Below, piece after piece: positions 13,840-59,647 of a stretch of DNA of 64,000 nucleotides. This DNA comes from Coleophoma eucalyptorum (Eukaryota > Ascomycota > Leotiomycetes > Helotiales > Dermateaceae), in NCBI GenBank assembly GCA_026120035.1, contig JALRME010000042.1, forward strand, positions 222,767 to 286,766. The letters run 5' to 3'. The notes under the pieces are model-generated. The model did not search any database, was not told the origin of the DNA, and saw only the letters and a program-made list of their open reading frames with translations. A program made the translations under genes and the position numbers. Position 1 is the first letter of the stretch; every line of letters starts with the position of its first letter.

Positions 13840-14997
13840 CTAATGAGTCTTGCCATCAACAGCACCCTCAATCCCCTCCAGATCACTATACAGCCTCCAT
13901 TGATAGTCCAAACTAGGATCATTGAAACGTGCCTTGATATCTAGCGTGCCTATTTTTGCCATATCTTCGGGTTCTAGCTCAAAGTCGGCCTCTAGGTTCT
14001 GCTGGATTTGCCAGTCAATGACACTCTTTGGAATAACGGAGCGGCCGTTGTTCACTCCCCAAGCCAGAACAATCTGTACTGGGCTCTTGCCATATTTCTC
14101 GCCGAGTTCTTTTAAAATCGGTTGGTCAGTTACTCGAATCATGTGAGCAACTTCCTTGCTCCAGCCAGTCGTCCGGTAGAAGTCGTTCATATTACCAAGT
14201 GGGCTGAACTGGATGACGTGGATTCCCTTACTTTGAAGCCATTGGTTAAAGTCTTTCTGTTGGAGATACGGGTGGACTTCCATCTGGTGAACGGCCGGTA
14301 CCTATGTATCGAGGATTAGTTACGGTATCTCGGAGCGATTAGATTAGTCACCGTTACTTACAACATCGCATTCATCGAGCAACTTTTGGATTTCTCCCTT
14401 GCTGAAATTCGATACCCCAATGGCCTTAGTCTTGCCAGTCTTGACCAGTTTTTCCATCGCCTTCCACGTATCTACAAAGTTCGTTGTTCCAGCAATCATG
14501 TTGCCGTTCGCATCGCGAGGGAATCGCTCCTCTCCGCGTGCAAATGTGCAGGGATAGTGCATCATCAACAAGTCGACGTACGGGGTATCAAGATCTTTCA
14601 GGGACTCTTCCAGAGCACCCTCGACATCATCCGGATGAAATTTGTTGCACCACAATTTAGTGCCCACGAAGATCTCCTCTCGAGCCACACCACTCTCCTT
14701 GATCCCCTTTCCGACCTGCTGCTCAACATCGTAGACGCGAGCGGTGTCAATAAGGCGGCATCCTGCTCGTAGCGCTCGGCTTACAGCATCTACTTGTGCA
14801 TCGGGGTCTTGGAATGTACCGAATCCAATGGCGGGGATTTTAGCACCGGTGTTAAGAGTGTGCCTTGTTGATCGGGTGGAAAGGGCACGGCGAGTATTCA
14901 GTGATACGACGGACCGCACTGCCGGTGTTTGGCTCTTCCTGAACGTGCTTCGCAAAAGGTTCGAAGCACGAACTGGAAGGATCGATATAGAAGTCAT
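13840..14997 (-). CDS. Aldo-keto reductase with mitochondrial-type presequence
   Basis: There are two exons, 14997-14362 and 14301-13840, with a 60-bp GTAAGT...TAG intron, encoding 365 residues. The catalytic tetrad of the family is present: Asp and Tyr in LIDTARVYD, Lys in VGTKLW and His in LMMHYP. The IGVSNFS motif follows. The barrel begins near residue 49 (TLNTGAKIPAIGFGTF). The first 48 residues contain no acidic residue and many Arg/Ser, which suggests a mitochondrial targeting sequence. It should reduce aldehydes or ketones with NADPH. It is the leftmost member of the accessory metabolic run and is followed on the same strand by a scytalone-dehydratase-like gene. The substrate is unknown. 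Confidence 0.88.
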
Positions 14998-15990
14998 GAT
15001 AATGGAAGTTGGAATTGAAGCAGATGTAGGGTAGGTATAAATGAGTAGGATTGGGCTGTTTTGTGAGATCAGGGCGAGTTATGGTCTTGTAATCAACAAG
15101 TAGTCGGCCTCGTTTCCCCGCTATGAGAGTCGACAGATAGGTCTCTATGTATATATACACGTGATTCAGTGAATGCCACGTCTCGAGGCACGATGTATGC
15201 TCTTCTATTTTGTGATCTCAATGTCTCAATTTATATTCCGAAGATAAGCATAATCGAGGCATGGATATCCAATAAGGATACCCGCTCTGAAACAATTGAC
15301 CACTCTTTTTCGATGTGCGAGTAGAATTCCAAGTTAAACAGCAAAGCTGGTCTTTATACCATATTAGGTATCCGAACTCAGTATTACTATTACAACTGAC
15401 GATCACTCCGGCAGTGGGGTCCAGTCTAAGTCCGACACATCGTCAACTCGGCAGAACAAGCCCCTCTTGCCAAGCCATGCGGGGGAGGGAGAGGGGGCGG
15501 GTGCGACGGACTGGCCCCTAGCCTCCCCACAGTAAAAAACAGTCAATGGCTTTGCTGACGAATGAAAGCCTCGCGGGTTTTGAGAGATTAGGGATCGAGT
15601 CGAATCAAAAAGGCAGTTCCACCAACCTGAACCTGAACCTGAACCCTTAGATCTGCAAGGACTCGTTTCGAGGCACATCATCCCGCATTTTGAAGGCCCT
15701 TAATGAGAACTTAAAGACAGAAAAAGAAAATGTGCAACCAGCTTTGGGAGATTTGGCCTAAATAAACTGCATTATATTTTGGGGAATATGCAAGCGTTTA
15801 CTTTGTTTCCTCTAAACCTTCATACTTTACAAAGTCCAACTGCAGTAAAATTCGTAGGCTTTTAAGCGAGAAATGTAAGAGAGAAGAGTTTCCAGTACAT
15901 GAGAGCCTCTATTAACCCTGGAAGATGAAGTCTCGAGTATTTGATCGCGATGCTTTATGAGAAGACTGGTTAAGTCTATACTTTCTGTCC
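14998..15990. other. Intergenic region with short hexamer repeat
   Basis: No gene is supported in this 1-kb stretch. Three head-to-tail AACCTG hexamers lie at 15624-15641, and a strongly G-rich run occurs at about 15480-15503. It lies between two minus-strand genes, so it holds the promoter of the aldo-keto reductase and the 3' end of the dehydratase-like gene. Confidence 0.5.
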
Positions 15991-16566
15991 CTATGGTGTC
16001 ACTCTGTCTGCAACAACTTCAGAGAACTCTCCTATCTCATATAGCAGAGAAGGTTTTATCCCTGCAAGTTTCCAGAGCCCATCTATCTTGATGTACCGCT
16101 GCTCTATATAGGATTTTCCATCGCTTGTTTTATCAACCTGCTTCTTTAAGCTACTAGACTGCTCGATCCACCTACCGTGGCCTGCAATCTGTTGCCACTC
16201 AACCACGATCGTGTCGGTAGAGACAGACTTAAAATATGGCTGGCCAAGTAAATGCTGAGTGAGGAGGGTTTTTCTGCCGAGCAAACCAGGAGAGAGAAAT
16301 TCAGAAATGAATTCTTCAGGTTCAAAAACTCTGTTTGGGATGGTTGTAGAAACAAGACGATAATCCACTTCAATTTTCGAAGCAAGGACGGCTCGAAGTC
16401 GGTGTTCATCCTATGTTCGGTCAATGTTGAGTGCTTTTAGAGAATCAACCTGAAGATAGTTATATACCTTTTGATCATAACCATCTGCAAAGGTACGTGC
16501 GGTCTGAACAATACCAATGTAGTCTCTGAATTCGAGATTTTCGGGAATGTAGACCTCAAATGTCAT
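15991..16566 (-). CDS. Scytalone-dehydratase-like protein (SnoaL/NTF2 fold)
   Basis: There are two exons, 16566-16468 and 16410-15991, joined across a 57-bp GTATAT...TAG intron. The product has 172 residues, the usual length of scytalone dehydratase. Features that match the family are GYDQKD near residue 30, VDYR, EEFISEFLSPGLLG, TQHLLG with its His, a His-containing QIAGHGRW stretch, and the closing YIKIDGLWKLAGIKP strand. By family it is a cofactor-free dehydratase of a small hydroxylated aromatic. The Ser/Asn pair that contacts substrate late in scytalone dehydratase looks only half conserved here (SYI), from my remembered alignment. No melanin gene lies nearby. An upstream ATG at 16614 would add 16 residues. 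Confidence 0.82.
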
Positions 16567-18850: not shown

Positions 18851-19359
18851 TAGCCATATTGATAACGTATACCCGAGAGCTTTAGTATTTGGATGGCAAA
18901 CGAATTTTAAACAACTGCCATCCTACAAAATTGAAAGCAAGACTTATGCAAGATCCATCCCTGCTATAGTTTTCTAATCTCAGTTTGAATAATTCAATAC
19001 CATATTTGAAGCCAATATCAAGGATCTCCGCTGATTCGTGAAACAAAATAAGAGATTTAGGATGCCATCGATATGACGAAGACTCCAAATATATTTTCTT
19101 GGTCTTTTTCCGCCTATTGCTTCATCATTGCTTTTTCTCGCCTGCCACTGCAACCGGCTTCCTAGTTCAAAGCGCGGCCCGATCAGCAGCAAGGCTGTAT
19201 ATTTATTACATACGATAAAGAATCTATAACACAGATTCATGAGCCTATTGGGATCTTTCAAGAGGAAGTGGAGGCCATGTGGTCGACAATCCGATAAAAT
19301 CTGGTAATGTGCTCGACATGTGCTAAAGAATTGGATTCAAAGTAAAATAAAATAAAAAT
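18851..19359. other. Intergenic region
   Basis: This is the 3' flank between the MFS gene (plus) and the decayed MFS (minus). It is AT-rich, with short minus-strand frames that show no recognisable family. It may include further eroded parts of the neighbouring pseudogene. Confidence 0.4.
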
Positions 19360-20084
19360 CCTTTTATGGTTTGAAAGGAACATGTAGATATAGCCAAATA
19401 TAATCCATAGAGTTCTTCTTACATAAGTAGCGCCGTCCCATATTATCTGCACAATCGCATTCACCAGCTGGCGAATCTGCAGGGCATGAAAAGGCAGGTA
19501 GAAAGCCCCAGGCCATTTTAGAAGGGACAATTTGGCCCAAGTCCCACCACGTGGCAAGGACAAAGGGTAACCACTGATGTCAAGCCGGGACAAACTCTAA
19601 GAAAATAGCACCACGCACAACTAGATTACCACCACATCCAGTGGCAGCAATGCAGAGCAATGAAGCCGCTGCAATAAAGCTATTTGCGCCTCCAACAGCG
19701 ATCAAGAAGACACCGCAGATGAAAAAGAAACAATTAAAGGTAAAGCGGCGGCCAACAATATCGCTGCCAAAACCCCAAAAGCTCGCACCAATGACCAATC
19801 TCACGATCCTAACATGATCAGTATAAAGTCTATCATGTATGATCTGTTAACATATTGAGCAAGTGCAAAGAAGGCCGGATACTGCGGGTTAAATTCGGCA
19901 TCGACCCGGGCAAGAATTCGACCAGTGACAGTCTCCATCGCCTGGTAAAAGTAATAAGTAGTGTCGCCCCCAAAGTTGCATGACCGACTCCACGTACCTG
20001 ATCGACGAACCATCCAAAATCACAAACAAACAGCATCTACTGGTATCTCCCTATACCTATGGCTTGGATGGCATGATTCACGAG
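19360..20084 (-). pseudogene. Decayed MFS transporter fragment
   Basis: Read on the minus strand, scattered frames give an ordered series of MFS motifs. These are HAIQAIGIGRYQ, then a stop, then GWFVDQ, AMETVTG and EFNPQYPAFFALAQY. They continue with ASFWGFGSDIVGRR, ATGCGGNLVV, FLEFVP, and finally WDLGQIV and FSCPADSPAGECDCADNMG. This is the first third of a roughly 500-residue transporter; the rest is missing. The break at 20037-20039 is a TAG where the family has Trp (TGG), and there is a frameshift near 19800. One intron (GTACGT...CAG near 19950-20010) is still recognisable. The family is of the type with long extracellular Cys-rich loop 3. It is not a copy of any other transporter in this window. 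Confidence 0.72.
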
Positions 20085-20607: not shown

Positions 20608-22155
20608 ATGACCGTGCAAGGAATTGTCCCGGAGGGCTCACCATTCACAATCCATAATATCCCATTCGGCATTATTTCGTGCAAAAATAATCCAGAACCA
20701 AGATGTGCATCTGCCATTGGTGAATTTGCAATTGATTTGAAATTATATGCCGAAAAGGGTCATTTAGAAGCTTTGGGTATTGAATTTTCTACCGAGAAAA
20801 TATTCAATCAGGTCAGTCGCTCTTATTTCCAGACTGTATCCTCTGCTAACTTTCTGGAAAAGGCCTCACTGAATGCATTTGCGGCAATGTCACACACGTT
20901 TCGCCGGAGTGTTCGAGAGAAGTTGATTCACGACATATCAAATAATGAGATTGATTCTTCTTGTCTAGTTCCACTCGCAGACGTTACAATGCATTTGCCA
21001 ATGCAGATAGGCGGATACTCCGACTTTTACTGCTCATTGGAGCACTGTCAGAATGTAGGTGCTAAATATATTAAGAACCAATAACTATTTAAAACTGATC
21101 TTGATATAGTGCTCTCCAATGGCAGCTGGTGCTGCAATACCGAAAAACTGGTTTTATGCCCCATCAGTATACAACTCTCGAGTTTCGAGTATAATTCCAT
21201 CCCCGCTTCCTGTCCGTCGCCCAAGAGGAGTTTATTATAACAGTGATGGCGATCCAGTATATGGGCCGTCTCAAGAATTGGATTTTGAATTGGAAATGGG
21301 CTATTTTGTTTCCAAGCCTGTCGAGTTCGGCAAGGAACTTAATATAGCGGAGGCAGATGAGCACATCTTTGGGTTTGTCCTGCTCAACGACTGGTCTTCT
21401 CGAGATCTCCAGATTTTTGAAATGAAACCTCTGGGACCCTTCCATGGTAAAGGTAAGAATAGAAGCTGGATTGGGTATATCTATATCGTCTGTGATGCTC
21501 ATATTTAAACTAGGTTTTGGTACTTCCATCTCAACTTGGATCATTACTATGGATGCATTGGACCCCTTTCGGTGCAATCCTAAGACAACTCAGAACCCAT
21601 CCCCTTTTCCACATTTGAAGTGGCCACAGGAAGGAAACGGCGCAATTGATATTAAGCTTCGAATAACTCTGATACGTAAGCACACCTCCCTAATTATGCA
21701 ATTTCTAGCTCGCTCATATATGCTCCCTATTGCAGGAAAAGGGAAGACTTTTATTCTAGGTACAAGTAATCTCAAGTATCTATACTGGACTCCGTTTCAA
21801 CAGCTTGCACATCATGCCTCTGCACTGTGTGGTATGAATACGGGTGATCTTATAGGTACTGGTACTATATCTGGCGATGTACGGCCGTCTTCCCCCTTGC
21901 TTCCAAATGGAGTTGTACTTACTTTAGCTTATACAGGGTACCAACGAATATGGTGAGAAAAATGAACTCGGTTGTCTGTTTGAGGCGACTCAAGCAGGAA
22001 ATAAGTTCCTAGTGTTGGAAGATGGTACACAAATGAAATATCTTGAGAATGAAGATGAGGTGATTTTGGAAGCTTGGTGCGGAGATAGAGACAGAAAGAA
22101 TGTAGTATTTGGATTTGGTGAGTGTAGAGGCAGAGTCCTCCCAGCGTTTGGGTAG
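20608..22155 (+). CDS. Fumarylacetoacetase (FAH) family hydrolase
   Basis: There are six exons: 20608-20811, 20863-21054, 21110-21452, 21514-21675, 21736-21878 and 21937-22155. The product has 420 residues, full length for eukaryotic fumarylacetoacetase. The first intron (51 bp, frame-neutral) is inferred because removing it joins IFNQ to ASLNAFAA as in the family, and it has a GCTAAC branch site. Catalytic-core motifs are present: the metal-binding FELEMGYFV, LNDWSSRDLQ, KPLGPFHGKG, and NLKYLYWTPFQQLAHH. The enzyme cleaves a carbon-carbon bond in fumaryl-type diketo acids after aromatic ring opening, releasing fumarate. No homogentisate dioxygenase or maleylacetoacetate isomerase lies beside it, so the true substrate may differ. 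A frame extending upstream to 20422 has no better start. Confidence 0.86.
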
Positions 22156-22741: not shown

Positions 22742-24500
22742 ATGACTAGCAAAGGAGAACCGGACTATTTTAAAGATCTACCATCTGATTGCTTTGCTCC
22801 TCGTCCTGGTAATGAAATCCTCAATATTGGGATCATTGGCGCTGGAATTGCTGGGCTTTCTGCTGCAGCTGGACTTCTTCGCAGCGGTCACAATGTCGAA
22901 GTATGCGCCCGTTGCTCTACCTTGAAGGGAAACAAACTCGATTAGTTGACTTACACACTACAAGATATTTGAGCGATCACGTTTCGCGAACGAAGTAGGG
23001 GCAGCTATTCATGTTTGCCCCAATGCATCTCGCGTGCTAAGATATTGGGGTTTTGATTTCGAAGCGGCAGGAGCTGTAAATTACGGTTTTGTTAGTGGCT
23101 CAAAGATATACAGTAGATGTAAAATACTGATCCAAATTAGAGTCATGTGATTACCGGAGACAGTCTTGAGACAATCTATCGTGGAACTCACGAGAGTTGG
23201 CCAGATAAATATGGAGCCGAAGCTTACTTTTTACACAGAGTAGATCTTCACAATGGTCTGAAATGTGTGGCTCTAGGCAGCGGTTCGAATACCTCTGCCG
23301 CTAAATTGAACTTGGCATCAGAGGTCGTTGACATTGATTGTGAATCTGGACGTATGACCCTTGCAGATGGAAGAACATTTCGGAAGGACTTGATGATTGC
23401 TGCTGATGGGGTCCATGTAAGATCAAACGTAGGGAACATTCTGTAATGCTTACCTTTTCCTGCAGTCCCGATTTCTTTCGAAAGTGGTGGGCAATGATAC
23501 ATCAGCATTATCCACCAACTTCTCGGCCTTTCGATTCATAATCCCAACTCAGGTTCTGCTCGATGCTCCTGAGACCAAGCCCCTCTTTGACGGCTCAGGT
23601 TCTGGGATAACAATACACACTTTGGATGACCGAAGACTTGTCTGGTATCCCTGTCGCTCGTACGGAATAGATACACCATATGTAAAGCACAGTTTCTAAG
23701 GTGTAATATAGAGGCATGCTACAGAATTTTGTGGGAATACATCCTGAAGTTGAAGGACAGAACTATCTAGAAGGCATGTACAATAACAGGTGATCCGTGT
23801 ACTGATCAGAGGCTGAATTGAAAACTAGAATGGAATGTTGAGGCACCCCTCAACAGGTTGCTGAAAACCTATGAAGGTTTCCATGGTTCTATAATTGAAG
23901 TGTGCAAGTAAGTTCTTAATGACAAAAGTTAACCGCCATTAAGATTTAGTCGCTATACTGATGGCTCGGTAGAAAAGCTGAAGACTTAAACTTATGGAAA
24001 TTACTATTCCGCAAGCCAATTGCCACCTGGAGGAAAGGCAAGCTTATTTTAATAGGAGATTCTGCACATCCAATGCTGCCTCGTTAGTATGACTACCTTG
24101 TTCAAAGTCTGGTATTCTAATTTAGCATACAGATCAAGGCCAAGGCGGTGGTCAAGGAATTGAAGACGGAGCTGCTCTAGGAGCTATTTTTTCCCATCTG
24201 ACTTCGAAGGACCAGATTCCAGAACGGCTTCGCATTTTCGAGATGGTGCGAAAGAACCGTGCCTCTGCAATGCAAATGTTGTCGAATGCAGGCCAAGACG
24301 AAGTTGAGAAGATTAAGAAGGATGTTCGACCATACATAAACGGGCCCGTTCCTCGTAGGTTGCTCTCACTCTTCGTGGCATTTAGCGCTAATAATGATTT
24401 TGTAGAAACTCCTGAACAAATACATGAATACAATTTTGGAAACAATGTTTTCCGAGACTGTATCAAGGCTTTGCAAGAGGAAGGACAATGGAAGGCTTAG
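22742..24500 (+). CDS. FAD-dependent monooxygenase, salicylate-hydroxylase-like
   Basis: This gene has nine exons: 22742-22900, 22965-23090, 23141-23416, 23466-23659, 23712-23773, 23829-23907, 23973-24082, 24133-24354 and 24406-24500. They encode 440 residues in one consistent frame. The FAD Rossmann motif is IGIIGAGIAGLSAAAGL near residue 30. A DG motif (AADGVHSR) and the second FAD motif LILIGDSAHPMLPHQGQG follow, and these define the para-hydroxybenzoate-hydroxylase-like flavoprotein group. Such enzymes hydroxylate an aromatic ring with NAD(P)H and O2. The fifth intron (23774-23828) fits only as GC-AG, and the last one is frame-neutral and inferred from branch site and family fit. It follows the FAH gene on the same strand. 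Confidence 0.86.
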
Positions 24501-27550: not shown

Positions 27551-30447
27551 CTATGTGATCTCCTCCAGGTTTTGTATAGACGAGTTAAGAACGCGAGCAA
27601 TTCTAACACGTAATCGGCATAATACAAGCCTCCCTACTTCCAATGTTTTCTTGATCGCTGCATGATCTACAGAATCAGAGCTAATGTGTACTGCCCACTG
27701 AGTAAGAACTGCGAGGTAAGTGCAAACGGCTGCATGAGGTGGTTCATAGAAGTTAGTTTCGGAATGGATGCTAGCGTTGGTGAGTGGGAATTTTGTTTTC
27801 CTCTGCGAAGACGTGATCTTGGAGGTTATTTTGATCAAATGATCTGCGTGCCAAAGAGCAATGGCACAATCATCTGAATAGCGCCAGGTACGCAAAGACG
27901 ACACCACTTCTTTGAACTCTTGCGCGTGTTTTAAATAAGTGTGGACAAGTCGATGGATGCTTGACATATTTGTTCGCAATACTATTGAACTCATGTGGAA
28001 TAAAAGCATTGCAGAATGATCCACGGTATTTCGAGACGTGTGCAACCACCGGTTGAGAGCGAGTTCGAAGTAAGCTGGCTTCCATATTGTTTTATTTGTT
28101 ACCGGATTGGGCCCTACAGGAATAGCGTTCCACGATATGCCAATGAGAGCCGCCAGACTATATATATTTGACATATCTGTATCGAATTTTGTCGAACTTC
28201 CTGGTCTTAGTAACATTCGAACAGAATCCAATAAATGTAGGGATTCGTCAGATGGAGCGGAATTGACTTTATCTAGAGACTCAGATAGATAGTTCCATTT
28301 CAGACTCAGATTCGGAGGACGTTGGAAAAGAACAGCGCGATAAGCCTCGAGCAAGTGAATATCATTTCGAATTCTACGAAAAACAAGTGTCTTAGAATTC
28401 GAACCTTTAGAAAGGCATATATGGATAGGACATACTTCGTAAGTTCTTCCTCGAATCTAGTATCCACAGGGATGCCTGATGAAGAAGGTCGAGTTTGATA
28501 ACATTGTTCAAGTTCCTAGTATAATAAGTTCATAGCGTGCAGATAGATCTTGAGTATTTGGCCATACCTCTAACAACAACATATGAAAGGCTTCGCTGCA
28601 TTCATAAAGTCTCTTATCGCCGCTAATCATCCCAAATAGCGTGATGAGCATATACTATTATTTGCAATATAGTAAGTAGTGCAATGGATTATATGAACAA
28701 AATACTTACCGCTTGCACGTTACGTATAAGATGGCCTTGAGGCCTTGGATATCTGGAGTAAGACTTTAATTGGTCGCGTCAGTAGTGCCTTCTACACTGT
28801 TATGATCACCTACATATCCAAATAAAAGTCTGCGAGAGTCATTGAACATGGCTTTTGACATGTTAAAACTTCCTTCAACGGTGCAGAATAAGCCCCCTAC
28901 AGCCGCCATGGCTAGGACTTCTTCTGGTGTAGTGTCCTCAGTTATCTTAAACCCAGCAAACGAAATAAAGGTGGCAGGAATGTGTTTCATAAAAATTGAC
29001 AAGAACACGTTGATAATACTTCGGTCAAAATTTCTGATAGATGGCTGAGTAAAGAGCCATCTGGTTGCATCTGTTGACATATGAGGTGACGATGCCCTGG
29101 AGAAGCGAGAATGTTCTTGGAGTGCATTTAAAGCAGCATATGGGGATTGTCCAGAAACGAAAAAATAATTATTAAATAATGCAGAGCCAGAATCATTAGC
29201 CGCATGGGGATTGGAACCGTACGAAAGATCGAAAAAGTCTGGGAGATTATAATTGCTGGGCATGAAATCGAAAGTCTGACATGGATGAGCATTTGCTTAG
29301 AGAAGTGAGAACTTGACTTACATTACTTCCCAGTTCGGAATTAGGCTCATAAATTGGAGCAAGACTGCTCATTTCATTCTCCGTAGGTTGTGTGTAAGAT
29401 TTATCAGAGAGAGCGAACTGATTGGAGGGCGAAGAGATTATTGGGATGAAAGCTTCTTGTTGCAGAGTGGAGTCAATCGCTTGACAAAGATGTTCTAGGC
29501 CTGCTGATATTGTTGGCATTGATGGATCAATCATCATGCCCGAAATCGAAGTTGTTGTAGCTTGATGCGGAAGTGCATTATGATGGATGATTTGATTCAT
29601 ATTTTCTGGAAGATAATTAGCAATTGTTTTATTTTATTTTTCTTATTTTTTTTATTCATGTTTTTTTGGTTTGAAATGGTGGTGCATTTAATACAGACCG
29701 GAAGCTGTCTCCCATACCATTCCTGTGGTGGAAGCATTTCCGCCACTGAGATCTGTTGACGGTGTATGAGCACCATTGGATGCAGCATCTGTCATGGGGG
29801 GCGTTTCTGGAACCGGGAATATCAAGTCGGAGGCTTCATCGATACCCGTTGCGGAAATTCCTGTAGTATGATACAGCTGTCGCTGGGTTTCGAACTGGCC
29901 GTAGGTACATTGTCTCCCAGCTTTGCGGCAGGCCGAACACTGCTCTTTACCAGAGCATCTGAGCTTTTTCTGTCGGCAAGAGTCGCAAGCTTGTCTAGCT
30001 CTCCGAGGTCGTGCTTCGTCTCGATTGTCGCTTGTAACTTCATCATTGCTGGGGCAATGTTTCGCTGTATGGCGGGTCTGCACATCTGATCGTTGGAAAC
30101 GACGTTCGCACTTCGGACACGAGTATGGGGCTTCTTGGGTGTCTAGATCAATACCAAGGGCTCTTGTCAGCGTTGTAGAGCATAATGACACAGAGGCGAC
30201 AGGACTCGATCATTCCAGCGGGTTCATACGTATTCGCTGGTGCCGGCGTAGATGTTCTGTTCTCTGAAAGCCTCGTCCACAGACCTGACACTATGAATCA
30301 AGGGTTCAGCACGGGGGTCTACTCGCACCCATACGTGCCGCCAAAACATACATGCTTCTGATCATGCGATCGAATGGGCTCATGATGGTTCCTCTCCTGA
30401 TTTTCGGTATCATCGCCATCCCTCAACGAAATACCCGAGTGGGCCAT
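27551..30447 (-). CDS. C2H2 + Zn2Cys6 dual-type transcription factor
   Basis: This gene has nine exons on the minus strand: 30447-30352, 30290-30230, 30142-29699, 29605-29322, 29275-28814, 28763-28710, 28654-28568, 28515-28436 and 28373-27551. They encode 796 residues. Two C2H2 fingers come first (CQVCGRGFQRTEHLRRHQ, then CPKCERRFQRSDVQTRH), each split or bordered by introns. A zinc cluster CDSCRQKKLRC...C follows, near residues 105-135. The rest is a fungal regulatory domain with the motif LFGMISGDKRLYE and a helical C-terminus. This order is known from pathway-specific regulators of carbon and specialised metabolism. It is a nuclear DNA-binding protein by family. It is divergent from a related protein that has no DNA-binding domain. 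Confidence 0.87.
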
Positions 30448-30884
30448 AGCAAGAAAATTGGATGAAGGAGTAGGATGGAGTGCAGAATCCGGAGCCGAAT
30501 GGGGTTGCGGGGTTTTCTGCTTGTTGAACTAAGAAACCTGGGGGCCGAGGACAGACGCGGCAAATGCGCACACCCACTGTTGGCACGCAATTCAGCCTGG
30601 TTGGGGACTTCCTGTACTCCACACAAATTCGTCATTGCACCACAAGAGAGAGACCAGATCAAGCCGAAGAGAGAGAAAGACGAGACACGACACACAACAC
30701 AAGTCAGTTGCGGAGAGAGTGGTCGGCGTTTGTTGAGGTCGGAGAAAGAAGGGCAGCATTGATGGTATGGAAAGGGATTTAGAGAATTGCGACACATCTC
30801 ATCTTCTCGTTTCTCCTCGCCCTGCCAGGTGCCATACGGAGTAGACCTTCGCTTGAACGTGAAACACGAAACATATTGACGGTC
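30448..30884. promoter_or_regulatory. Divergent promoter between two regulator genes
   Basis: A 437-bp region lies between the two start codons. It includes a purine-rich run (GAGAGAGA-type, about 30640-30730). Overlapping open frames on both strands here have no recognisable similarity and I treat them as non-coding. Confidence 0.5.
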
Positions 30885-32669: not shown

Positions 32670-32829
32670 TTAGCGAAACAGGAAGAAAGTAGCAAGACAA
32701 AGCCAGAAATCAATCGATTTTGATCTTGACCGGTGCTGAATCTTTCAATTATCGTACATGTCTGAGAAGATCCTTCATATGTCAAAACTTCGTCCCCAAA
32801 AATTTATCAAATTCAGCTCTGGTAGGATT

Positions 32830-44144: not shown

Positions 44145-45109
44145 ATGCCCCACGCTGAAGAGTCTGTAACCTTCACCCCAGCCGCATTTTGGTCTCATGG
44201 TTCTCCACTGATGTGCTGTAAAGAGTCCACCTCATCAGCGTACTGGCAAGAGGTTAGTTATTTCACCCTAAATATCTGGAAATGCAGATATCTAACGTAT
44301 CATATCTAGTTTGGAAAGCAAGCTCGAGCTCATAATGTCAAAGGTCTAGTGTTCATTGGCGCCCACTGGGAAGAGCTAGATGACCGCATTCGAGTGGCCA
44401 CAAAGCTGAAGCCAGATATTCTCCAAATGGATATGGTCCCACGGTCATACTGGGCAGATTATAAAATGAACATCGATCTTGGCCTCGCCCAACGAGTGAT
44501 TTCCCTTCTTCGGGATCATGATTTTTCAGATGTCGAGGAGGACCCAACTTTTGATTGGCATGACGATACCATCACGCCTGCTACCTGGATTTTTCCAGAA
44601 GGTACACCACCTGCAACGGTTGTGAGCCTAAATGCTCGATACAACCCCGTTTTCCATGCAAAAATTGGTCAAGCTCTAAGCCAGCTCCGCAAAGAAGGTA
44701 TTCTACTTTGTGGAACGGGAGGGGCTGTGCATAATCTATATCGAAATAATTGGCTGCCAGTATTGGCAAGGGGAGATAACTTCCAGCCAAATTCAAAGCC
44801 TGCTCAATGGGCTGTAGAATTTGAAAAGTCTGTCAATGATGTTGTTACCACAACGGCTGTTAGTATATACCCTTAACCTATTACTCACGCACACTAACGT
44901 TCACAAAGGGGTCACAACTTGTGGGATCATTGATACGATTGACCAATTCGCCCCGTTATAAAGATGCTCATCCTACCGACGACCACTTCTATCCGCTGAT
45001 TGTAATTGGAGGAGCAGTTGCAGAGGAAAATTCACATGGCCAGAAGATGGCTCAGACTTGGGAGTTACAGCATATGTGTAATAATCAGTTTGTTTGGGGA
45101 AGCTGGTAG
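44145..45109 (+). CDS. Extradiol ring-cleavage dioxygenase, LigB/DODA family
   Basis: There are three exons, 44145-44252, 44310-44858 and 44909-45109, with 57- and 50-bp introns, encoding 285 residues. Metal and catalytic His residues appear in SHGSPLM (residue about 18), GAHWEE, GGAVHNLYRN and DDHFYPL. That is the pattern of class III extradiol (LigB-like, DOPA 4,5-dioxygenase) enzymes. It should open a catechol-type ring next to the hydroxyls using Fe(II) or Zn(II) and O2. The acidic surface and the lack of a signal peptide suggest a cytosolic protein. This is the only ring-opening enzyme seen in the window and the strongest pointer to aromatic catabolism. Betalain-type chemistry is an alternative known for the family. 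Confidence 0.88.
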
Positions 45110-45376: not shown

Positions 45377-45970
45377 TTAGTCATCATTTCCACTAGCTGG
45401 AACCCCCTCTGTGCCTCGTCCAAGATCTTCCTTCAATACTTTGCCACCCAGAACCAACTTTTGACAGTCTTGAAGAACAAATAGCATTCTCGCCCACTCG
45501 GTCTCACTTGGGTTCCTCCACGCATGCATTGTTGCCCTTTGAACGGCTACGTCGCCTCGGTCCATGATTTGTGTTTCTCCGGAGTCTAGTACCAATTCAA
45601 TTGCTCCTTCAAGTACCACACCATAGTCCAGACTCTGAGTTCGGTGCATCATGCAGTCAAAGCCGGGAGCAAAGTCCACAATTCGACAAACGGTGCCTCC
45701 GGAATTGACCAGGCCAAGCTTCTTTGAGGACATAAGGGCATCATGTGTTTCAATATCTGCGGAGTCATTGAGAGATACTGGAAATGATGAGGTCGTGTAA
45801 ACTACGCTGAAGCCCATGGCATGGTCTTCGTAGGCAGACCAATTGGCAGGACGTTTGGACTGGATGATCGCTTTCCCAGTTTTCTCATCGTGGCCGGTAA
45901 GATAGGCTTGCACGCCACGAAGGTTTGACACCTGCTGTGGTTGTGGTGAAGGATTTTGAGAGGTAGCCAT
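45377..45970 (-). CDS. Cupin-domain protein
   Basis: This single exon encodes 197 residues. The cupin barrel covers roughly residues 95-180, with FAPGFDCMMHR, DYGVVLEGAIELVLDSGE and GDVAVQRATMHAWRNP. The metal site seems partial: one His in motif 1 (MHRT) and one in motif 2 (MHAWRN). Small cupins of this type often sit beside transporters and dioxygenases in fungal metabolic clusters, acting as isomerase, decarboxylase or unknown. An in-frame ATG at 46078 would add 36 residues of basic, poorly conserved look, so I use 45970. It is divergent from the second DHA1-like transporter. Confidence 0.8.
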   Translation of the reverse strand: MATSQNPSPQPQQVSNLRGVQAYLTGHDEKTGKAIIQSKRPANWSAYEDHAMGFSVVYTTSSFPVSLNDSADIETHDALMSSKKLGLVNSGGTVCRIVDFAPGFDCMMHRTQSLDYGVVLEGAIELVLDSGETQIMDRGDVAVQRATMHAWRNPSETEWARMLFVLQDCQKLVLGGKVLKEDLGRGTEGVPASGNDD

Positions 45971-46655
45971 TGGAATGATCAATTTGCCGATGATGGTAGG
46001 TTTGTCTCGTCCGAAGCAGTTTCTCATGCGATATAACAGTCTTGAATGAGAAAACGAGTCTGATATAAACGACCCCACTGAATCCGCATGGATGTTGTCC
46101 TACTGTCTCAGCCCGGATGTACAGCACTATGCTCTAGATGGGGCACGGTTTGCCCTGACGGGCAGTTCTCAGTCGGGTCGGTTCAGCAATGCAACAACGC
46201 CACCCCCGCACGGCCGAGCAGAGTCTCTTCTTTACCCCGAGATATTTCTCCACTACTGCCCCTGATGATCGTGGGGTGAGTGCGATAGTTGCGGGGTCCC
46301 CAGCCGGATCAAATGGTGAGCATGACTGATCAGAGTTCGTAGCGTTGTGATTTGTTCGGGACAGTGTACTTGTTGTGAAGCAGCCATTCCCACCCGCCCT
46401 CTGTCTGCCGCGGCGCCTGCTCCTTCTCCGACAGTAGCAGAACCAATTCAAGGTTGAAAATTTCAACTACTACTATATAAATGAGTTGCTTGGCAGCGAC
46501 CCCAGAAAAGAATACGAATCTTTTCCCTTCCGCCAGTGCTCCCACCCATCCACCCTTCCATATCTTCCTCGACCATTTTTCAGACTTTCTGTTTGTTTTT
46601 GGGGAAGTCTGAAGACGCTCAATACATTCCTATATCCCCGTCCCGTGACACAACC
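45971..46655. promoter_or_regulatory. Divergent promoter region, cupin and MFS genes
   Basis: This 685-bp region is without a gene if the shorter cupin start is right. TATATAAAT at 46474-46482 lies about 175 bp before the transporter start. The preceding 46190-46430 stretch is GC-richer than its surroundings. Confidence 0.5.
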
Positions 46656-48395
46656 ATGGAGGAGAAATCCCAGCAAGACGCAGCGGTCCATGTCGTGGAA
46701 GAGATTGAGAAGCGTGCAACCACTCTAGACACTTCGACCATTATTACCGGTAATGCCTTGCTCGTTGATGCGGACGGCCATATACAGAAGTTACCCCTCC
46801 CTAGTTCAAATCCCAATGATCCACTCAATTATTCCAAATGGGAGAAGGCACTTATCACTTTCAACTGTTGCTGGTTCTCAATCATGTCTCTCGCTCTGGC
46901 AGGTGGTCTGGGTGCTATTCTCGTCACCTTCATCGACCTGTACACCCCCGAACACACGGTCAACCAGGTGGTATGGTTGACCACCTTTCCATCCTTATTC
47001 ATTGGAATCGGTACGTTGCCGAAGCATTGATTTGTTACAAGTGATGCTAATGTAGAATAAAGGCAACTTGATAATTCTGCCACTTGCCTTGGTATTCGGA
47101 CGACGTCCCGTATTCTTGGTCTCCATTTTCGGTCTTCTGCTTGCGACAATTGGAGCAGCTGTCCAGAAATCGTATGAAGGCCACCTTGCCGCTCGAATAA
47201 TACAGGGCTTGGCAACAGGCGCAACTGAGAGTCTCCTTCCTCTCATGATTACAGAAATCACGTTCGTACACCAGCGAAGTCTTGCATTTGGCCTTTACTG
47301 GTCTACCCAGACGGCTCTTTCTAGCGCGCTCAACCTAGCCAGCTCGTACGAAACTGCATCGCTGTCCTGGAGATGGTATTACTGGATTTATGTTTTTACA
47401 ATCGGATTTGGCTTGGTCACAGCCCTCTTGGGAGCCTTTGAGACTCGATTTCAACGCCCGCCCATTTCTTTACAAGGGCAAGTCGTCATAACCGATGATT
47501 ATGGTGTTACGCGGACATTGCAAGGTGACGAGGCTATTGCATATATGGAATCAGAATTGATAGATTTAGATGCGGTAAATGTTGCGCGGAAAACTTACAT
47601 TCAAAAGCTTGATTTATCCTCTGGCATCGCACCTCATCCATTTCACATCATGGTGACATGCTGGGGAAATATGCTCAAGGCTCTGAGTTCTCCTGGGATT
47701 GTATATGCTCTGCTAGTCTCAGCAGCAGTTTTGGGATGTGCCATAGGTGTGTCATTAACGTACAATACTGTGCTCCAAGAAGTGTATGGCTGGCCCCCTG
47801 CTAATGTTGGTCTCATCAATATCGGGGGGGTCATCGGTGCTTTCCTCGGCATGCTCTATGCTGGCCACCCAGCCGATAGACTGTCCGTATGGCTTGCGAA
47901 GCGTAACGGGGGGATTCATAAACCCGAACATCGTCTTCTCATGCTGCCCTTCGTTGGCTTGGTAGGGTTCGCATCGCTTCTTCTGTACGGATTCACAGCA
48001 TCAGGCAATGCTACCTGGTGGGGACCTTACATGGGCTGGACATTATATGAGTTTTGCTTCGTCGCTATTCTCATCATTACAACGTCGTTCGCCGCCGAGT
48101 GCCGACCTGACGACCCCGGCCCAGGCCTAGTGATGGTTGTAGGTGCAAAAAATATCATCGCTTTCGGCGTATCTTATGGATTGATTCCCATGGTTACAAA
48201 TTACGGCTACAAAAAATCTTTAGGAATACTGTCGGCTGTCCATGCTGGCATCTTTCTGCTTGGTATTCCAACGTACTGGCTTAACCCACTCGTGAGTCGT
48301 AACTTAATCCTCCTAACTGACATTCCACTAATTATCAACAGTGGCGTGAGAAGTTTGCAACAAGATCTAAGCAGTCTCGTGCCGGAGGAGCATAG
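46656..48395 (+). CDS. MFS transporter, DHA1-like, second copy
   Basis: There are three exons, 46656-47010, 47063-48291 and 48342-48395, encoding 545 residues. The last exon adds only 18 residues (WREKFATRSK...). The motifs NDPLNYSKWEKA, VFGRRPVFLVS and ESLLPLMITEI match the layout of the transporter at 17.1 kb. The helix 4-5 block and the charged central loop are also similar. It has twelve predicted helices and is located at the plasma membrane by family. The likely role is movement of an aromatic or other small organic compound, with direction unknown. It is divergent from the cupin gene and followed by a Zn2Cys6 regulator. Confidence 0.88.
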
Positions 48396-49061
48396 GGTTC
48401 GAGGAAAACAAATGGCTGCTCTCCTGAATTTTGTACAGCAATTGCTTCAAGCCTCACGGAGGTCCTATTCCGCAATGGAACCCGCTTCAATAATACCTAA
48501 CCATACTTTGGTTTAGCATTCAATATTTTGAATCCATGCTCTATAATATGTGGTTTCAGAGGTGTAGAATGAGGATATACCAAAACTCACAATATTAAAT
48601 CTTGAATCTCTGAACGTGACTGGATTCTAGCTAAACTGAGGCTCAAGCGAGCGAGTTCCAAGTGAGATAAGCAAGAGCTATCGTGTATAGTTCCCAGTAT
48701 AACAGGTAGAGGATACGCTCTGCATCTACATATATGCTGCCTTCCGCGGATCTTTGCCCCGACACATGTCTACAACTTGGTCTCTAGGACGGCGTTCGTC
48801 CCTTTCACGTGACCCGGCCACCCCCACAAACTCTCCTCCACGAATTTAGACGAAGATTTGCCCCACGTTTTCGCCAAGCATCCATCCTCATGCGCAGCTC
48901 AAGCACGCTTCTTCAAACCCATGGCGGACATCGTATATATATATATATGGCATAGCCTTGACGGCTGACCACAGTTGCAACACATAGAAGGTTTGATGTT
49001 GTGGTGAGGATATTTGACTGCTTGATACGCAGGTGGGAATCATTCCAATAGCTGTGGGAAT
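48396..49061. other. Intergenic region
   Basis: This 666-bp stretch lies between the transporter and the next regulator, both on the plus strand. It contains a TA run at 48934-48948 about 115 bp before the regulator start. No gene is seen. Confidence 0.5.
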
Positions 49062-56057: not shown

Positions 56058-56449
56058 TTCAATTCGTGTTATAGATTATTCTAGACAGGGAGTAATGCGA
56101 CCGTCTCAAGTTGTGGAAAGACGTAGTAGTGTGTTTTGAGTCAAAAGGGATCAATTTTTGCTTTGATGCATTCCGATTCAAAAATAACAAAACATTCGAC
56201 ACTCCATTATATAGTAGTATCTAGGCAGGTGGACAGACCAAGGATGTGGTCAAATAATGCAAAGCTCTTTGGGGCAAGCTTTCTCGATTTCCTGCACTCC
56301 ACAAGACCGCAAGATTCATGGTTTGGTACAAGCGGTTTAGCTTTACCAGTTTATCCCGAGCCGACAGTGCATAGGCGGTTCGGCTGAGCAAGATATACTC
56401 AAGCGGAGCGGTTCGGCTGTCGGCTGAGGTAACAGTAGCGACGCCATGC

Positions 56450-57143: not shown

Positions 57144-57688
57144 TTTGCAGAAGCCACGGCAGTTCCTTGCTATCAGCTTTTCGTTCAGTGTTTGCGCAGA
57201 GAGAGTGATTCAGGAAGCCCCATTGTCAGGCTGGACCGACGGCACGGGGCGCATGTTGGGGCTTGCGAAGGTTGTAGTTGTTAACTTGTTGAAGCGGCAG
57301 TAGACCTCGCGAGAGTAGATGCGAAATGACCGAATGCGCTTAGCTTGCCGTCTGGTTGTTTACTATTATCTAGAATTAGGGTACAAGCTACAAATATGCG
57401 GCCCCTATTATACATATGCCTTACCTACTGCAACGCTAAAACATTTTATCGTCATATCACTAGCTTTATATGCGTTCTGGTTTATGAACAAATCATGAAG
57501 CTAGACATTAGGGTTATGGCGATAGAAAATACCTTATAATTGAGCCCTCCACGTCTACTGTTATTTTATGAATTAATACACTTTTATTTATTTTTTTGCT
57601 AATCATATGATATAATGCCAAACCCAATGGGGCCATTGTCCATAGAGGCCAAACCCCAGCCGAAGTGTATCTAATGTGCACTCTTTCC
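57144..57688. other. Intergenic region
   Basis: This 545-bp stretch lies between the broken MYND gene and the tannase gene. The right part (57350-57620) is AT-rich. No gene is seen. Confidence 0.5.
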
Positions 57689-59647
57689 TTAGTAGACAGG
57701 CACCTTGAAAGCATCGAGATCCCAGAACCAGTTATCAATGCTGGCCTGATCGTAGACGCAAGAAGGCTCAGTGGAGTTGTTGGTCCAGAGTGGTCTCAAT
57801 GGCCAGGCGCAAATCTGAGCGTTCGCTCCGATATTAGTGCCAGCCAGATGAGTGGCATTAAGAGTAGTTGGAGTATTTCCATTCTCAACCCAGTCGATCA
57901 TGACGGCCAGGTTGGTCTGAGGGAATGGACCTTCTGGCTCATAGTCATTAAGTGCGCAATGAGAAGCACCAGGGACAAGGTATAGTTGGTACCTAGACAT
58001 TAGGATCTCAGACTTAGTATTGGCTTTTAGGGAATATTTTGGGGGGGGGGGCGGGAGGGGCATTTGATGGGTTAGGAGTTAGAGTGGCATACCAATCAGC
58101 CATCGCGGCAGTCGACTCATTGAAAGTCATATTACCGTACATAATGTTGCGAACGGATTCGTGGTAGCGGACTGAGGAGGCAGTAGGGATAGAGAAATCA
58201 GATTCTCCATGGTAGTGAAGAATCTTTCCTCCAGCTGCCTGCCAATCAGAAAGGTCGGGCCAGGTTGTTTGGAGGACATCCTCGTACTCTTTCCACCCTT
58301 CGACGATCCAGTCCTTCAAAGTAGAACCAGTAACATTGTCAAGTGTGGTGAAAATGTCGGTGTCAAGAAGTTGAACGAAGCGTGTGATAAACTCAGTACC
58401 TTGAGAATTGATTGAAAGGCCCCATGTTCCAGTGGTCTCGTCGTATGCAGTCAGGGCATCTACAAAAGTGGCCATAGCTGGTTGGTATGATAAATAGACT
58501 TGCTTTCCCTCATCATCCTTCATTCCGGCGACAATAGCGGAGGCAACAGCAGCTGCTTGTTGAGTCACAGTGCCATTTTGAGCAGGATAAGCCGATGTGT
58601 ACTGAGTAGCAGCAGTAGCCTCGCAGCTGTACGCAAGACCAACAGTAGAATTGAAGTCAAAGTTCATCTTACAGAGATCCGATCTTGAAACAACCCCATC
58701 GGCTTTTCCGTCGAATTCATCGCAGGCCAGGATTGTGGCATTAGTAATGGCCTCCATCTCGCATGGAGGGGGATAGTATCCCAAGTCTTGCTCCACAACA
58801 TTTGACCAAAGATGTTGAACTTGTTGGTGGGCGAAACGGAAGGCGGGGGCACCAGCGATAACACCATCATAGACTATTTTCTGATCAGCTATATTTTCTG
58901 ACCTCAATGTAAAACAGAACACTTACCACCTGGGTATCTTTGAACTTGAGACCATCCATCACGACCGCCCTCGGAGCATCCTTGGTAGTAAGTGTAGACG
59001 TGACTATCACCCATACTGTAGAAAAGTCTAGTCAATTCCTTTCCAAGCACAGTGAGTTCGTGGATGCCCTGGTAACCGAACATTTGAAGAGCGGGCAAGT
59101 TGGCAGTGCCATTGGCGAGGGGGAAAACAGAGTCGAACTGATTAGCTGCGGGGTATTAGTAGTTCCTCTTCCAAGCGTAAACCGAAAGCGACTTACAGAC
59201 ACTACCAAAACCTGCATCAGTAAGACCTGAGACAGCACCGTAAGTGACTCCTCCCGGAAGAGAGCCACTGAGGGTAGTCCCAGAGTTAATTGCATAACCA
59301 CCGCCACCCGTTGCCAAGAACCGATTTTTGAAGTCAGCTGGGGCAGGAAGCCAGTAAACTACAATAATGCTGTCATCAATGGCCGTGTGAGAGTATGTGA
59401 AGGTAACATTGCAGTAGTCGAAAACAGCATCAGGGTAAAAGACGACACCGGAAACTGAAGCGTTGTAAACAGGATTGGCAGTCACTGATGTGGCATCGAT
59501 GGTGGTTCCAGCAATAAAGCCATCGGCTGGTAGAGCGGCTTGAACGTTAGCAACGGTACAAGCATCAGCAAGGGTGGTAGCCGTGGTGGAATTGGCAGCT
59601 TGGACCGATGCTGCGGCACTAGCAGCTAGGAGGGCTGAGACTCTCAT
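57689..59647 (-). CDS. Secreted tannase / feruloyl esterase
   Basis: There are four exons, 59647-59197, 59145-58927, 58873-58093 and 57992-57689, encoding 584 residues. A signal peptide is evident (MRVSALLAASAAASVQA). The tannase-family catalytic pattern is complete: the nucleophile in YYQGCSEGGRDGW, an Asp in HYHGESDFSIP, and the His-Cys pair in PGASHCALND. The Cys neighbours of Ser and His form the disulfide-linked CS-D-HC arrangement known for this family. The calcium-loop region (FDGKADGVV) is also visible. The enzyme would release phenolic acids such as gallate or ferulate from plant esters outside the cell. The 100-bp third intron contains a ten- to eleven-base G run on the plus strand. 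Confidence 0.92.

What the first reader, a model, noticed from the sequence alone, without database searches (positions are those of the whole stretch)
13840..59647. A 46-kb accessory metabolic cluster with no backbone-synthesising enzyme, readable as a phenolic-catabolism supercluster
Seen: tannase, two aromatic-ring FAD monooxygenases, an extradiol ring-opening dioxygenase, FAH, two CocE hydrolases, a scytalone-dehydratase-like enzyme, aldo-keto reductase, cupin, two PhyH dioxygenases, three intact transporters and four regulator-type genes. No PKS, NRPS, terpene cyclase or prenyltransferase is visible on either strand. Known: these families cover ester release, hydroxylation, ring opening and cleavage of the opened chain. 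Inferred: they act together on a plant phenolic. Cluster finders keyed on core enzymes would miss such a locus.
Basis: partly seen in the sequence, partly recalled or inferred. Interest (0 to 1): 0.8.

Follow-up and report, generated by a model that had tools for sequence, protein, structure and literature searches.

The report
Fungal phenolic-degradation supercluster of two modules
This stretch of a fungal genome holds about twenty accessory genes, most likely two interleaved gene sets for breaking down aromatic (probably plant phenolic) compounds; part of one set appears to have moved between distantly related fungi as a linked unit and carries a ring-opening enzyme type seldom reported in fungi.

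Summary
The gene list is real. No ketoacyl synthase was found on the contig.

It is more than a chance neighbourhood. Relatives sit together elsewhere in this genome: on C46 (DODA, ALDH-like, CocE1, cupin, FAH, MFS, FMO) and on C28 (PhyH2, FMO2, TF3, CocE2, PhyH1, MFS). Outside the window, 24 cross-family pairs lie within 10 kb; random placement gives mean 0.55, maximum 7 in 20,000. In other fungi, the ten nearest CocE1 relatives match the contig of a DODA or ALDH-like hit in 9 of 10 cases, the next 110 listed in none. DODA and CocE1 trees agree on 6 of 6 splits and both reject Sordariomycete monophyly.

Best reading: a hybrid degradative gene cluster, a known kind, made of two interleaved modules. 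Substrate and pathway order are inferred. Tannase, dehydratase-like and reductase genes do not recur with the modules.

The parts
13840..14997 (-). aldo-keto reductase (edge gene; not shown to belong to either module)
   Evidence: Pfam PF00248 E 4.9e-43; 2 exons
15991..16566 (-). scytalone-dehydratase-like protein (edge gene; its last intron is optional, the frame stays open without it)
   Evidence: Pfam PF02982 E 5.8e-27 for the form without the last intron; PDB scytalone dehydratase E 8e-20 for the spliced form; a much stronger match to the family lies on C42
17084..18850 (+). MFS1 transporter, 3 exons, open
   Evidence: PF07690 on the main frame 17245-18402; splice model without stop
18983..20036 (-). 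sugar/MFS transporter remnant
   Evidence: broken frames; weak MFS_1 match on 1 of 3 frames
20608..22155 (+). FAH: full-length fumarylacetoacetase-type hydrolase (module B)
   Evidence: PF01557+PF09298; solved fumarylacetoacetase 9sqs E 4e-84 over residues 7-436 of 437
22742..24500 (+). FMO1: FAD aromatic hydroxylase (module B)
   Evidence: PF01494; best PDB decarboxylative vanillate 1-hydroxylase 8x38, 171 bits
25170..27335 (+). CocE1: CocE/NonD-type alpha/beta hydrolase (module B)
   Evidence: PF02129+PF08530; 3ib3 E 3.5e-56 with the GxSY motif aligned
27551..30209 (-). TF1: Zn2Cys6 regulator with adjacent C2H2-like motif (by eye); exons and start unsettled; assigned to module B only because C46 has a regulator of the same domain type
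   Evidence: PF00172 E 1.5e-7 on 29691-30209; exon chains; C46 regulator C2H2+Zn_clus; bodies of the two show no BLASTP similarity (20 bits)
30885..32669 (+). TF4: regulator-like protein, no recognised domain
   Evidence: no Pfam hit; open splice model
32830..34424 (-). MFS2: sugar-type transporter (first exon may lie further upstream)
   Evidence: PF00083 E 1.4e-84; models
35475..37824 (+). TF2: fungal transcription factor (Zn2Cys6 motif by eye)
   Evidence: PF04082 E 2.7e-8; open 5-exon model
37935..39013 (-). PhyH1: phytanoyl-CoA-dioxygenase-like (module A)
   Evidence: PF05721; HxD motif
39890..41659 (+). CocE2 hydrolase, divergent from PhyH1 (module A)
   Evidence: PF02129+PF08530; the divergent pair recurs at C28 and C9
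42015..43638 (-). ALDH-like protein, divergent, no conserved catalytic Cys, hydrophobic C-terminal tail by eye (module B)
   Evidence: Aldedh below cut-off alone (16.3 bits, E 0.0038); family profile that includes the C46 row vs class-3 ALDH E 2e-14; Cys check; relatives on the same contigs as DODA or CocE1 in other fungi
44145..45109 (+). DODA/LigB type III extradiol dioxygenase (module B)
   Evidence: PF02900 35.7 bits; DOPA dioxygenase 8in2 E 6e-23; AF2 model of the relative P0003, Foldseek to 8in2 E 4e-19
45377..46027 (-). small single-domain cupin (module B)
   Evidence: PF07883 30.8 bits; 8x0u E 6e-32, 3es1 E 4e-27
46656..48516 (+). MFS3 transporter (module A or B)
   Evidence: PF07690
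49062..51861 (+). TF3: Zn2Cys6 regulator (module A); relative on C28
   Evidence: PF00172+PF04082; 29% over 655 aa to C28 gene
52888..54259 (+). FMO2: FAD aromatic hydroxylase (module A)
   Evidence: PF01494; 51% over 408 aa to C28 gene
54840..56057 (-). PhyH2 (module A)
   Evidence: PF05721; 49-55% to C28 gene
57689..59647 (-). tannase/feruloyl-esterase family protein, signal-peptide-like start by eye (edge gene)
   Evidence: PF07519 E 4e-85 on an earlier 509-aa model; CS and HC motifs in the 584-aa model
61600..64000 (.). AT-rich, RIP-like degenerate sequence at the contig end (right flank)
   Evidence: GC 26-33% and TA/AT 1.3-1.5 at 62-64 kb; contig ends here

Best explanation
The locus is a hybrid fungal degradative gene cluster in which two accessory catabolic modules are interleaved. 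Module B (FAH, FMO1, CocE1, ALDH-like, DODA, cupin, with an MFS and probably TF1) most likely runs a meta-cleavage pathway for a carboxylated phenolic: MFS uptake; CocE1 cuts an ester or lactone; FMO1 hydroxylates the ring, ortho or ipso with decarboxylation, to give a catechol or hydroquinol; DODA opens the ring; the cupin rearranges or further oxidises the product; FAH hydrolyses the resulting 1,3-diketone or acylpyruvate to central acids. Module A (PhyH1-CocE2, TF3, FMO2, PhyH2, MFS3) would hydrolyse and hydroxylate a related ester and may feed module B or act alone. Shown: gene content, recurrence of both gene sets in the genome, cross-species contig linkage of CocE1, DODA and the ALDH-like gene, and matching CocE1 and DODA trees. 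Inferred: activity, substrate, step order and joint regulation.
For: Families. C46 holds a C2H2/Zn2Cys6 regulator, DODA, ALDH-like, CocE1, cupin, FAH, MFS and FMO within 15.3 kb; C28 holds PhyH2, FMO2, TF3-like, CocE2, PhyH1 and MFS within 16.1 kb; C90 holds FAH, cupin and CocE, C24 holds FMO, CocE1, cupin and a Fungal_trans protein. 24 cross-family pairs within 10 kb outside the window against a random mean of 0.55, maximum 7 in 20,000. Trees agree on 6 of 6 splits over 9 shared rows; Sordariomycete monophyly rejected, p-AU 0.0002 for both. DODA fold and conserved His; FAH matches a solved fumarylacetoacetase over its length; FMO1 is nearest a decarboxylative vanillate 1-hydroxylase. No ketoacyl synthase on the contig.
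Against: No expression or metabolite data. FMO matches are distant (171 bits at best), so the substrate is open. The ALDH-like proteins share no catalytic Cys, so no aldehyde oxidation step can be assigned, and their ALDH kinship is itself weak: 0 of 6 pass the Aldedh cut-off (best 19.1 of 23 bits); the E 2e-14 profile match includes the C46 row, which is the only one over the cut-off. The C46 ALDH-like gene was missed by the genome search with the window protein; its link rests on BLASTP 31.6 bits and hhalign probability 94, E 1.5e-7 over 135 columns. TF1 and the C46 regulator share domain type but no detectable body similarity. TF2, TF4, MFS2 and the ALDH-like protein have no tblastn match of 45 bits or more in the four regions. 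The C46 DODA belongs to a different subfamily, so C46 is a deep relative, not a copy. Most members of these families are not clustered: neighbours within 10 kb for FAH 3 of 7, DODA 1 of 5, PhyH 4 of 12, cupin 3 of 9, FMO 3 of 9 (CocE 8 of 13). Module A was tested only inside this genome. The random null ignores that accessory genes gather in some regions. Shared multi-megabase contigs do not prove adjacency. F. mexicanum, Coniothyrium and C. higginsianum have both genes without a shared contig (the first on two contigs under 18 kb, the last perhaps from two assemblies).
Confidence: 0.6

Rival explanations
1. Detoxification rather than nutrition: the modules destroy plant or microbial aromatic toxins without feeding carbon to the cell.
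For: Patchy distribution and tree conflict fit selection by particular chemicals; degradative clusters have been linked to plant defence compounds (PMC10735191, passages read).
Against: FAH-type enzymes normally yield acids that enter the TCA cycle (general knowledge), which suggests carbon use.
Confidence: 0.3
2. Biosynthetic cluster without a local backbone enzyme: FMO, cupin and reductase tailor a hydroquinone made elsewhere, as in epoxyquinoid (asperpentyn) biosynthesis, where an FAD monooxygenase, a cupin and ketoreductases act on a 4-hydroxybenzoate-derived core.
For: FMO1 resembles a decarboxylative hydroxylase, a cupin and an aldo-keto reductase are present; asperpentyn uses the same enzyme classes (PMC12356543, abstract and passages on cupin read).
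Against: No prenyltransferase or P450 inside 13.84-59.65 kb (a P450 lies outside at 7.9-9.6 kb); DODA and FAH belong to ring-opening and C-C-cleaving families; AKR has no match in the C46, C28, C90 or C24 regions.
Confidence: 0.15
3. DODA makes a pigment precursor (betalamic-acid type) and the cluster is for pigment or DOPA-derived products.
For: Nearest solved structures are plant DOPA dioxygenases; betalains are reported from Aspergillus sydowii with tyrosinase named in the abstract (PMC12653660, search listing and start of abstract only).
Against: No tyrosinase among the models; FAH and CocE have no place in that route.
Confidence: 0.05
4. Accidental gathering of unrelated accessory genes next to a repeat-rich contig end.
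For: RIP-like AT-rich right flank at the contig end; edge genes (AKR, dehydratase-like, tannase) show no recurrence with the modules.
Against: Recurrence of both gene sets in the genome and linkage in other fungi.
Confidence: 0.1
5. A standard gentisate (GC) or homogentisate (TD) catabolic cluster.
For: Contains FAH, a salicylate-hydroxylase-like FMO, a cupin and MFS genes.
Against: Cupin has no gentisate-dioxygenase match at E up to 1; FAH is the two-domain fumarylacetoacetase type; no model hits hmgA, maiA, hppD or stilbene-dioxygenase families.
Confidence: 0.05

Closest known systems
Fungal degradative gene clusters (DGCs), classes ARD (aromatic ring-opening dioxygenase) and SAH (salicylate hydroxylase), and their hybrids
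   Same: Accessory clusters with aromatic-processing core genes, uneven distribution; hybrid classes are reported (PMC10735191, part 1 of section 7 and passages read)
   Different: Here a LigB-type gene co-travels with CocE1 and an ALDH-like gene and sits with cupin and FAH, interleaved with a PhyH/CocE module; I could not check the original DGC gene lists (Gluck-Thaler and Slot 2018 is not held)
Gentisate catabolism (GC) cluster of Aspergillus fumigatus
   Same: FMO, FAH-superfamily hydrolase, cupin, C6 regulator and MFS together (PMC3914699, outline and passages read)
   Different: GC uses gentisate dioxygenase, fumarylpyruvate hydrolase and stilbene dioxygenase; none is found here, and the GC gene list in the passages read has no LigB-type enzyme or CocE
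Tyrosine degradation (TD) cluster
   Same: FAH
   Different: no hmgA, maiA or hppD among the models here
Tannic/gallic acid regulon TanR/TanX of A. niger
   Same: tannases and an FAD monooxygenase for gallate (PMC10512348, passages read)
   Different: Deleting all 17 putative ring-cleavage enzymes, chosen by domains that include LigB, did not stop growth on gallate there; tannase is not linked to the modules here
Asperpentyn epoxyquinoid cluster
   Same: FMO + cupin + reductase
   Different: its route starts from a prenylated benzoate and a P450; no DODA or FAH is named in the passages read

Membership tests
Fungal degradative gene cluster (ARD/SAH hybrid) | core aromatic-processing gene: aromatic ring-opening dioxygenase | tested here: met
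   LigB PF02900 over cut-off; several relatives bear that name in NCBI; fold match to DOPA dioxygenases. The query sequence used in the DGC papers was not available
Fungal degradative gene cluster (ARD/SAH hybrid) | salicylate-hydroxylase-type FMO | tested here: inconclusive
   PF01494; salicylate hydroxylase 5evy among PDB hits but not specific
Fungal degradative gene cluster (ARD/SAH hybrid) | conserved co-location in several genomes | tested here: met
   shared contig for two of CocE1, DODA and ALDH-like in 11 other fungal genomes (7 CocE1-DODA, 2 CocE1-ALDH-like, 2 DODA-ALDH-like); other genes could not be checked
Fungal degradative gene cluster (ARD/SAH hybrid) | demonstrated degradation of an aromatic compound | not testable with these tools
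   needs growth or enzyme assays
Gentisate catabolism cluster | gentisate 1,2-dioxygenase | tested here: not met
   cupin matches 8x0u and 3es1 at E under 0.001; no gentisate dioxygenase at E up to 1
Gentisate catabolism cluster | fumarylpyruvate hydrolase | tested here: not met
   two-domain fumarylacetoacetase type, solved fumarylacetoacetases E 4e-84 and below 1e-79
Homogentisate/tyrosine cluster | hmgA and maiA beside FAH | tested here: not met
   no modelled gene hits these families
PKS/NRPS-type biosynthetic cluster | backbone synthase | tested here: not met
   none of 65 listed ketoacyl-synthase matches on C38; no such family in models
LigB/DODA type III extradiol dioxygenase | conserved His residues of the family and fold | tested here: met
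   H55, H152, H245 invariant in 17 of 17 rows, H177 and H240 nearly invariant, SHG His present in 15 of 17 (the other 2 start downstream); Foldseek; which His bind metal is recalled
Active aldehyde dehydrogenase (window 42015-43638) | catalytic cysteine | tested here: not met
   window protein has only Cys 110 and 313; the one column with Cys in 4 or more of 7 rows is N-terminal

The most novel reading that the evidence does not exclude
A horizontally moving fungal meta-cleavage (extradiol) pathway: CocE1 and DODA form a linked unit that has spread among Leotiomycetes, Sordariomycetes and Dothideomycetes, in the first two with an ALDH-like protein that lacks the catalytic cysteine and seems membrane-anchored. 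In this genome it has been woven together with a second hydrolase/PhyH module into one 46-kb supercluster. If so, ring opening in ascomycete catabolism is not only intradiol, and a dead dehydrogenase-like protein has been kept as a pathway scaffold or regulator.
Probability: 0.35. Interest if true: 0.72.

Novelty: new variant of a known kind. Interest (0 to 1): 0.52.

Why it matters
[quoted passage not shown] A gene set that ties a LigB-type enzyme to fixed partners across three fungal classes gives a testable catabolic pathway for it. The interleaving of two gene sets that also occur apart shows one way catabolic superclusters may be assembled.

Tried and rejected
Gene finder: a strict setting collapsed to 13 genes and a lax one gave micro-introns; a middle setting plus hand-picked splice sites was used. 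Structure prediction of the ALDH-like family failed (mean pLDDT 40.9) and was not used. The PDB sequence search for PhyH1 gave nothing. Rfam and tRNA scans of the window were empty. Paper searches: in the rows listed (6 to 15 rows each, except 1 and 3; often far more papers matched) I saw no title or abstract start that names a CocE-DODA-ALDH-like-cupin-FAH cluster; of the 3 papers I opened one (PMC10512309, passages). Subscription papers are not held. Gentisate, homogentisate, PKS, pigment and epoxyquinoid readings were weighed and set aside (see membership and rivals). The organism was not identified: the nearest sequences in this cluster are Leotiomycetes, but the cluster seems mobile, so this is weak.

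Rows chosen: the A1 alignment used 16 of 85 DODA hits, A4 15 of 85, the first DODA tree 21 of 85 and the second 13 of 85; the CocE trees used 35 and 16 of the 120 listed of 1763 hits. The co-location count used loci merged by hand and their midpoints: FAH 7, DODA 5 (4 of them distant), PhyH 12, CocE 13, cupin 9, FMO 9 (only loci with a best exon of 80 bits or more; weaker FMO loci were dropped); the window itself was excluded. The tannase control used 22 hand-merged loci. The clade tested is a taxonomic class, but I ran the test after seeing the tree. One search printed only matches of 45 bits or more, and TF1 was not among its queries.

Full report
What is there. The window is G000:C38:222767-286766 of an unnamed 45.26-Mb genome and ends at the contig end. 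Introns and Zn2Cys6 regulators mark it as fungal. Between 13.84 and 59.65 kb I modelled 20 genes; 19 are open from ATG to stop, the exception being TF1, whose exons and start are unsettled. In order: AKR(-), scytalone-dehydratase-like(-), MFS1(+), FAH(+), FMO1(+), CocE1(+), TF1(-), TF4(+), MFS2(-), TF2(+), PhyH1(-), CocE2(+), ALDH-like(-), DODA(+), cupin(-), MFS3(+), TF3(+), FMO2(+), PhyH2(-), tannase(-).

No backbone enzyme. A genome-wide ketoacyl-synthase search lists 65 matches, none on C38. The 19 gaps between models are at most 1757 bp with no open frame above 153 aa; ten leftover frames and exon pieces gave a weak MFS match, one chance match, and two domains already in the models.

The genes recur together in the same genome. 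I searched the whole genome with FAH, DODA, PhyH1, FMO1, CocE2, cupin, CocE1 and FMO2 and read four regions. C46:1157251-1172522 carries a C2H2/Zn2Cys6 regulator, DODA (43% over 238 aa), an ALDH-like gene, CocE1 (57-60%), cupin (58% over 104 aa), FAH (35-37%), MFS (26-30%) and FMO (39-42% to FMO2). C28:2713-18837 carries PhyH2 (49-55%), FMO2 (51% over 408 aa), a TF3 relative (29% over 655 aa), CocE2 (49%), PhyH1 (46%) and two MFS. C90 carries an AP_endonuc_2-type gene (dehydroshikimate-dehydratase-like by recall), a SnoaL-like gene, FAH (43-49%), cupin (52%), a protein with no clear domain, and CocE (36% to CocE1). C24 carries FMO1 (40%), a histidinol-dehydrogenase family gene, CocE1 (55%), cupin (53%) and a Fungal_trans protein. 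C9, C7 and C47 carry CocE2+PhyH1, CocE2+CocE+PhyH1 and FAH+CocE by coordinates only. The divergent PhyH1-CocE2 pair is seen at C38, C28 and C9. So the window looks like a C46-type set and a C28-type set interleaved: PhyH1-CocE2 lies between the two halves of the C46-type set, and ALDH-like-DODA-cupin lies inside the C28-type set. AKR, the dehydratase-like protein, tannase, TF2, TF4, MFS2 and the ALDH-like protein had no match of 45 bits or more in the four regions.

Two links are weaker than the rest. The C46 ALDH-like gene was found by position: its own Aldedh match is E 1.7e-10, BLASTP to the window protein gives 31.6 bits, a profile of five relatives gives probability 94 and E 1.5e-7 over 135 columns, and the genome search with the window protein missed it. 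TF1 and the C46 regulator share a domain type but their bodies show no similarity (20 bits).

Is this more than chance? With the window excluded and loci merged by hand, 24 cross-family pairs lie within 10 kb; 20,000 random placements gave a mean of 0.55 and a maximum of 7. Accessory genes gather in some regions, so this null is generous. As a counter-check, of 22 other tannase loci 0 lie within 10 kb of a module-family gene (1 within 15 kb), and of 3 other scytalone-dehydratase loci 0 do. Not every locus is clustered: FAH 3 of 7, DODA 1 of 5, PhyH 4 of 12, CocE 8 of 13, cupin 3 of 9 and FMO 3 of 9 have such a neighbour.

Other fungi. Protein searches gave 85 DODA hits, 5 ALDH-like hits and, for CocE1, 1763 hits of which the best 120 are listed. 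By species and contig length, DODA and CocE1 share a contig in Xylogone, Fusarium sp. Ph1, F. lateritium, F. torreyae, Aureobasidium, Sporothrix bragantina and Thozetella; ALDH-like and CocE1 in Fusarium AF-6 and Dactylonectria; ALDH-like and DODA in Bisporella and F. duplospermum: 11 genomes. Among CocE1 ranks 1-10 this is 9 of 10; among ranks 11-120 it is 0 of 110. Locus-tag gaps where printed are 4 (F. lateritium), 5 (F. torreyae), 2 (S. bragantina), 3 (AF-6) and 1 (F. duplospermum), five pairs; the Aureobasidium pair sits on a 28.8-kb contig. F. mexicanum, Coniothyrium and C. higginsianum have both genes on different contigs. The ALDH-like relatives were found only in Leotiomycetes and Sordariomycetes. 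One Aspergillus oryzae entry is annotated as CocE and cupin in one 795-aa protein (P0136), either a fusion or two neighbouring genes merged.

Co-inheritance. Trees of CocE1 and DODA agree on 6 of 6 splits over nine shared rows, and both reject one Sordariomycete clade (p-AU 0.00018 and 0.00024); the CocE1 tree places the Dothideomycete Aureobasidium with Sporothrix and Thozetella (100/98), and so does the DODA tree (92/93; taxonomy). This fits transfer of the linked pair, or old duplication with losses. The test was run after I had seen the tree. In the larger CocE tree the window sits in a clade of 12 (100/99) within a clade of 14 whose sister is the C46 CocE (96/95). The C46 DODA belongs to a different DODA subfamily.

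Enzyme-level evidence. DODA: LigB family; the model of the relative P0003 (mean pLDDT 81.5) matches DOPA dioxygenases first, then aminophenol, gallate (DesB) and LigAB dioxygenases. Its histidines are conserved; metal roles are recalled. FMO1: best PDB matches are decarboxylative vanillate 1-hydroxylase, an unnamed FAD protein, 6-hydroxynicotinate 3-monooxygenase and an entry named 4-hydroxybenzoate decarboxylase. FAH aligns with solved fumarylacetoacetases over its length. CocE1 keeps the GxSY nucleophile region. PhyH1 and PhyH2 keep HxD. The cupin matches two PDB entries named only as cupins. The ALDH-like protein has two cysteines, and no column beyond an N-terminal one holds Cys in 4 or more of 7 rows, so it is unlikely to be an active dehydrogenase; the seven-row profile matches class-3 aldehyde dehydrogenases over 183 N-terminal positions (E 2e-14), but it includes the C46 row. 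Its structure prediction failed.

Mechanism. Inferred order for module B: uptake, ester cleavage (CocE1), decarboxylative or ortho hydroxylation (FMO1), extradiol ring opening (DODA), a cupin step of unknown kind, FAH hydrolysis. Module A: hydrolase, FMO and two 2-oxoglutarate-type oxygenases on a related substrate. None of this is shown by sequence alone; a detoxification role is also open.

Comparison. Degradative gene clusters keyed on ring-opening dioxygenase or salicylate hydroxylase, with hybrids, are a described kind (PMC10735191). The gentisate cluster (PMC3914699) differs in its dioxygenase and hydrolase. Two papers state that extradiol cleavage is undescribed or less common in fungi (PMC10512348; PMC12388069). 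I therefore call this a new variant of a known kind.

Noticed in passing
window 61600-64000: AT-rich stretch with RIP-like dinucleotide ratios at the contig end, probably a degraded transposable element bordering the cluster.
   Followed up: partly
window 60148-60571: Three copies of a 49-nt direct repeat (86-100% to the reference copy) between the tannase and the AT-rich end.
   Followed up: no
window 27551-32669: Divergent regulator pair: a protein with a C2H2-like motif plus Zn2Cys6, and a partner with no recognisable domain.
   Followed up: partly
window 1633-4689: Protein with several tandem ubiquitin-like domains (5 Pfam ubiquitin stretches in the 458 residues scanned) and a further C-terminal region that was not scanned.
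   Followed up: no
window 7858-9618: P450 that looks by recall like ERG5/CYP61, next to a sugar transporter at 10714-12595; likely the left border of the accessory region.
   Followed up: no
L049-L050, G000:C90:918025-928302: Small cluster joining an AP_endonuc_2-type gene (dehydroshikimate-dehydratase-like by recall), SnoaL-like, FAH, cupin and CocE.
   Followed up: partly
L051-L052, G000:C24:2403431-2412995: FMO1-like gene, a histidinol-dehydrogenase family gene, CocE1-like gene and cupin side by side.
   Followed up: partly
P0136 (Aspergillus oryzae): One annotated protein carries both CocE domains and a cupin domain, either a fusion or two merged neighbouring genes.
   Followed up: no
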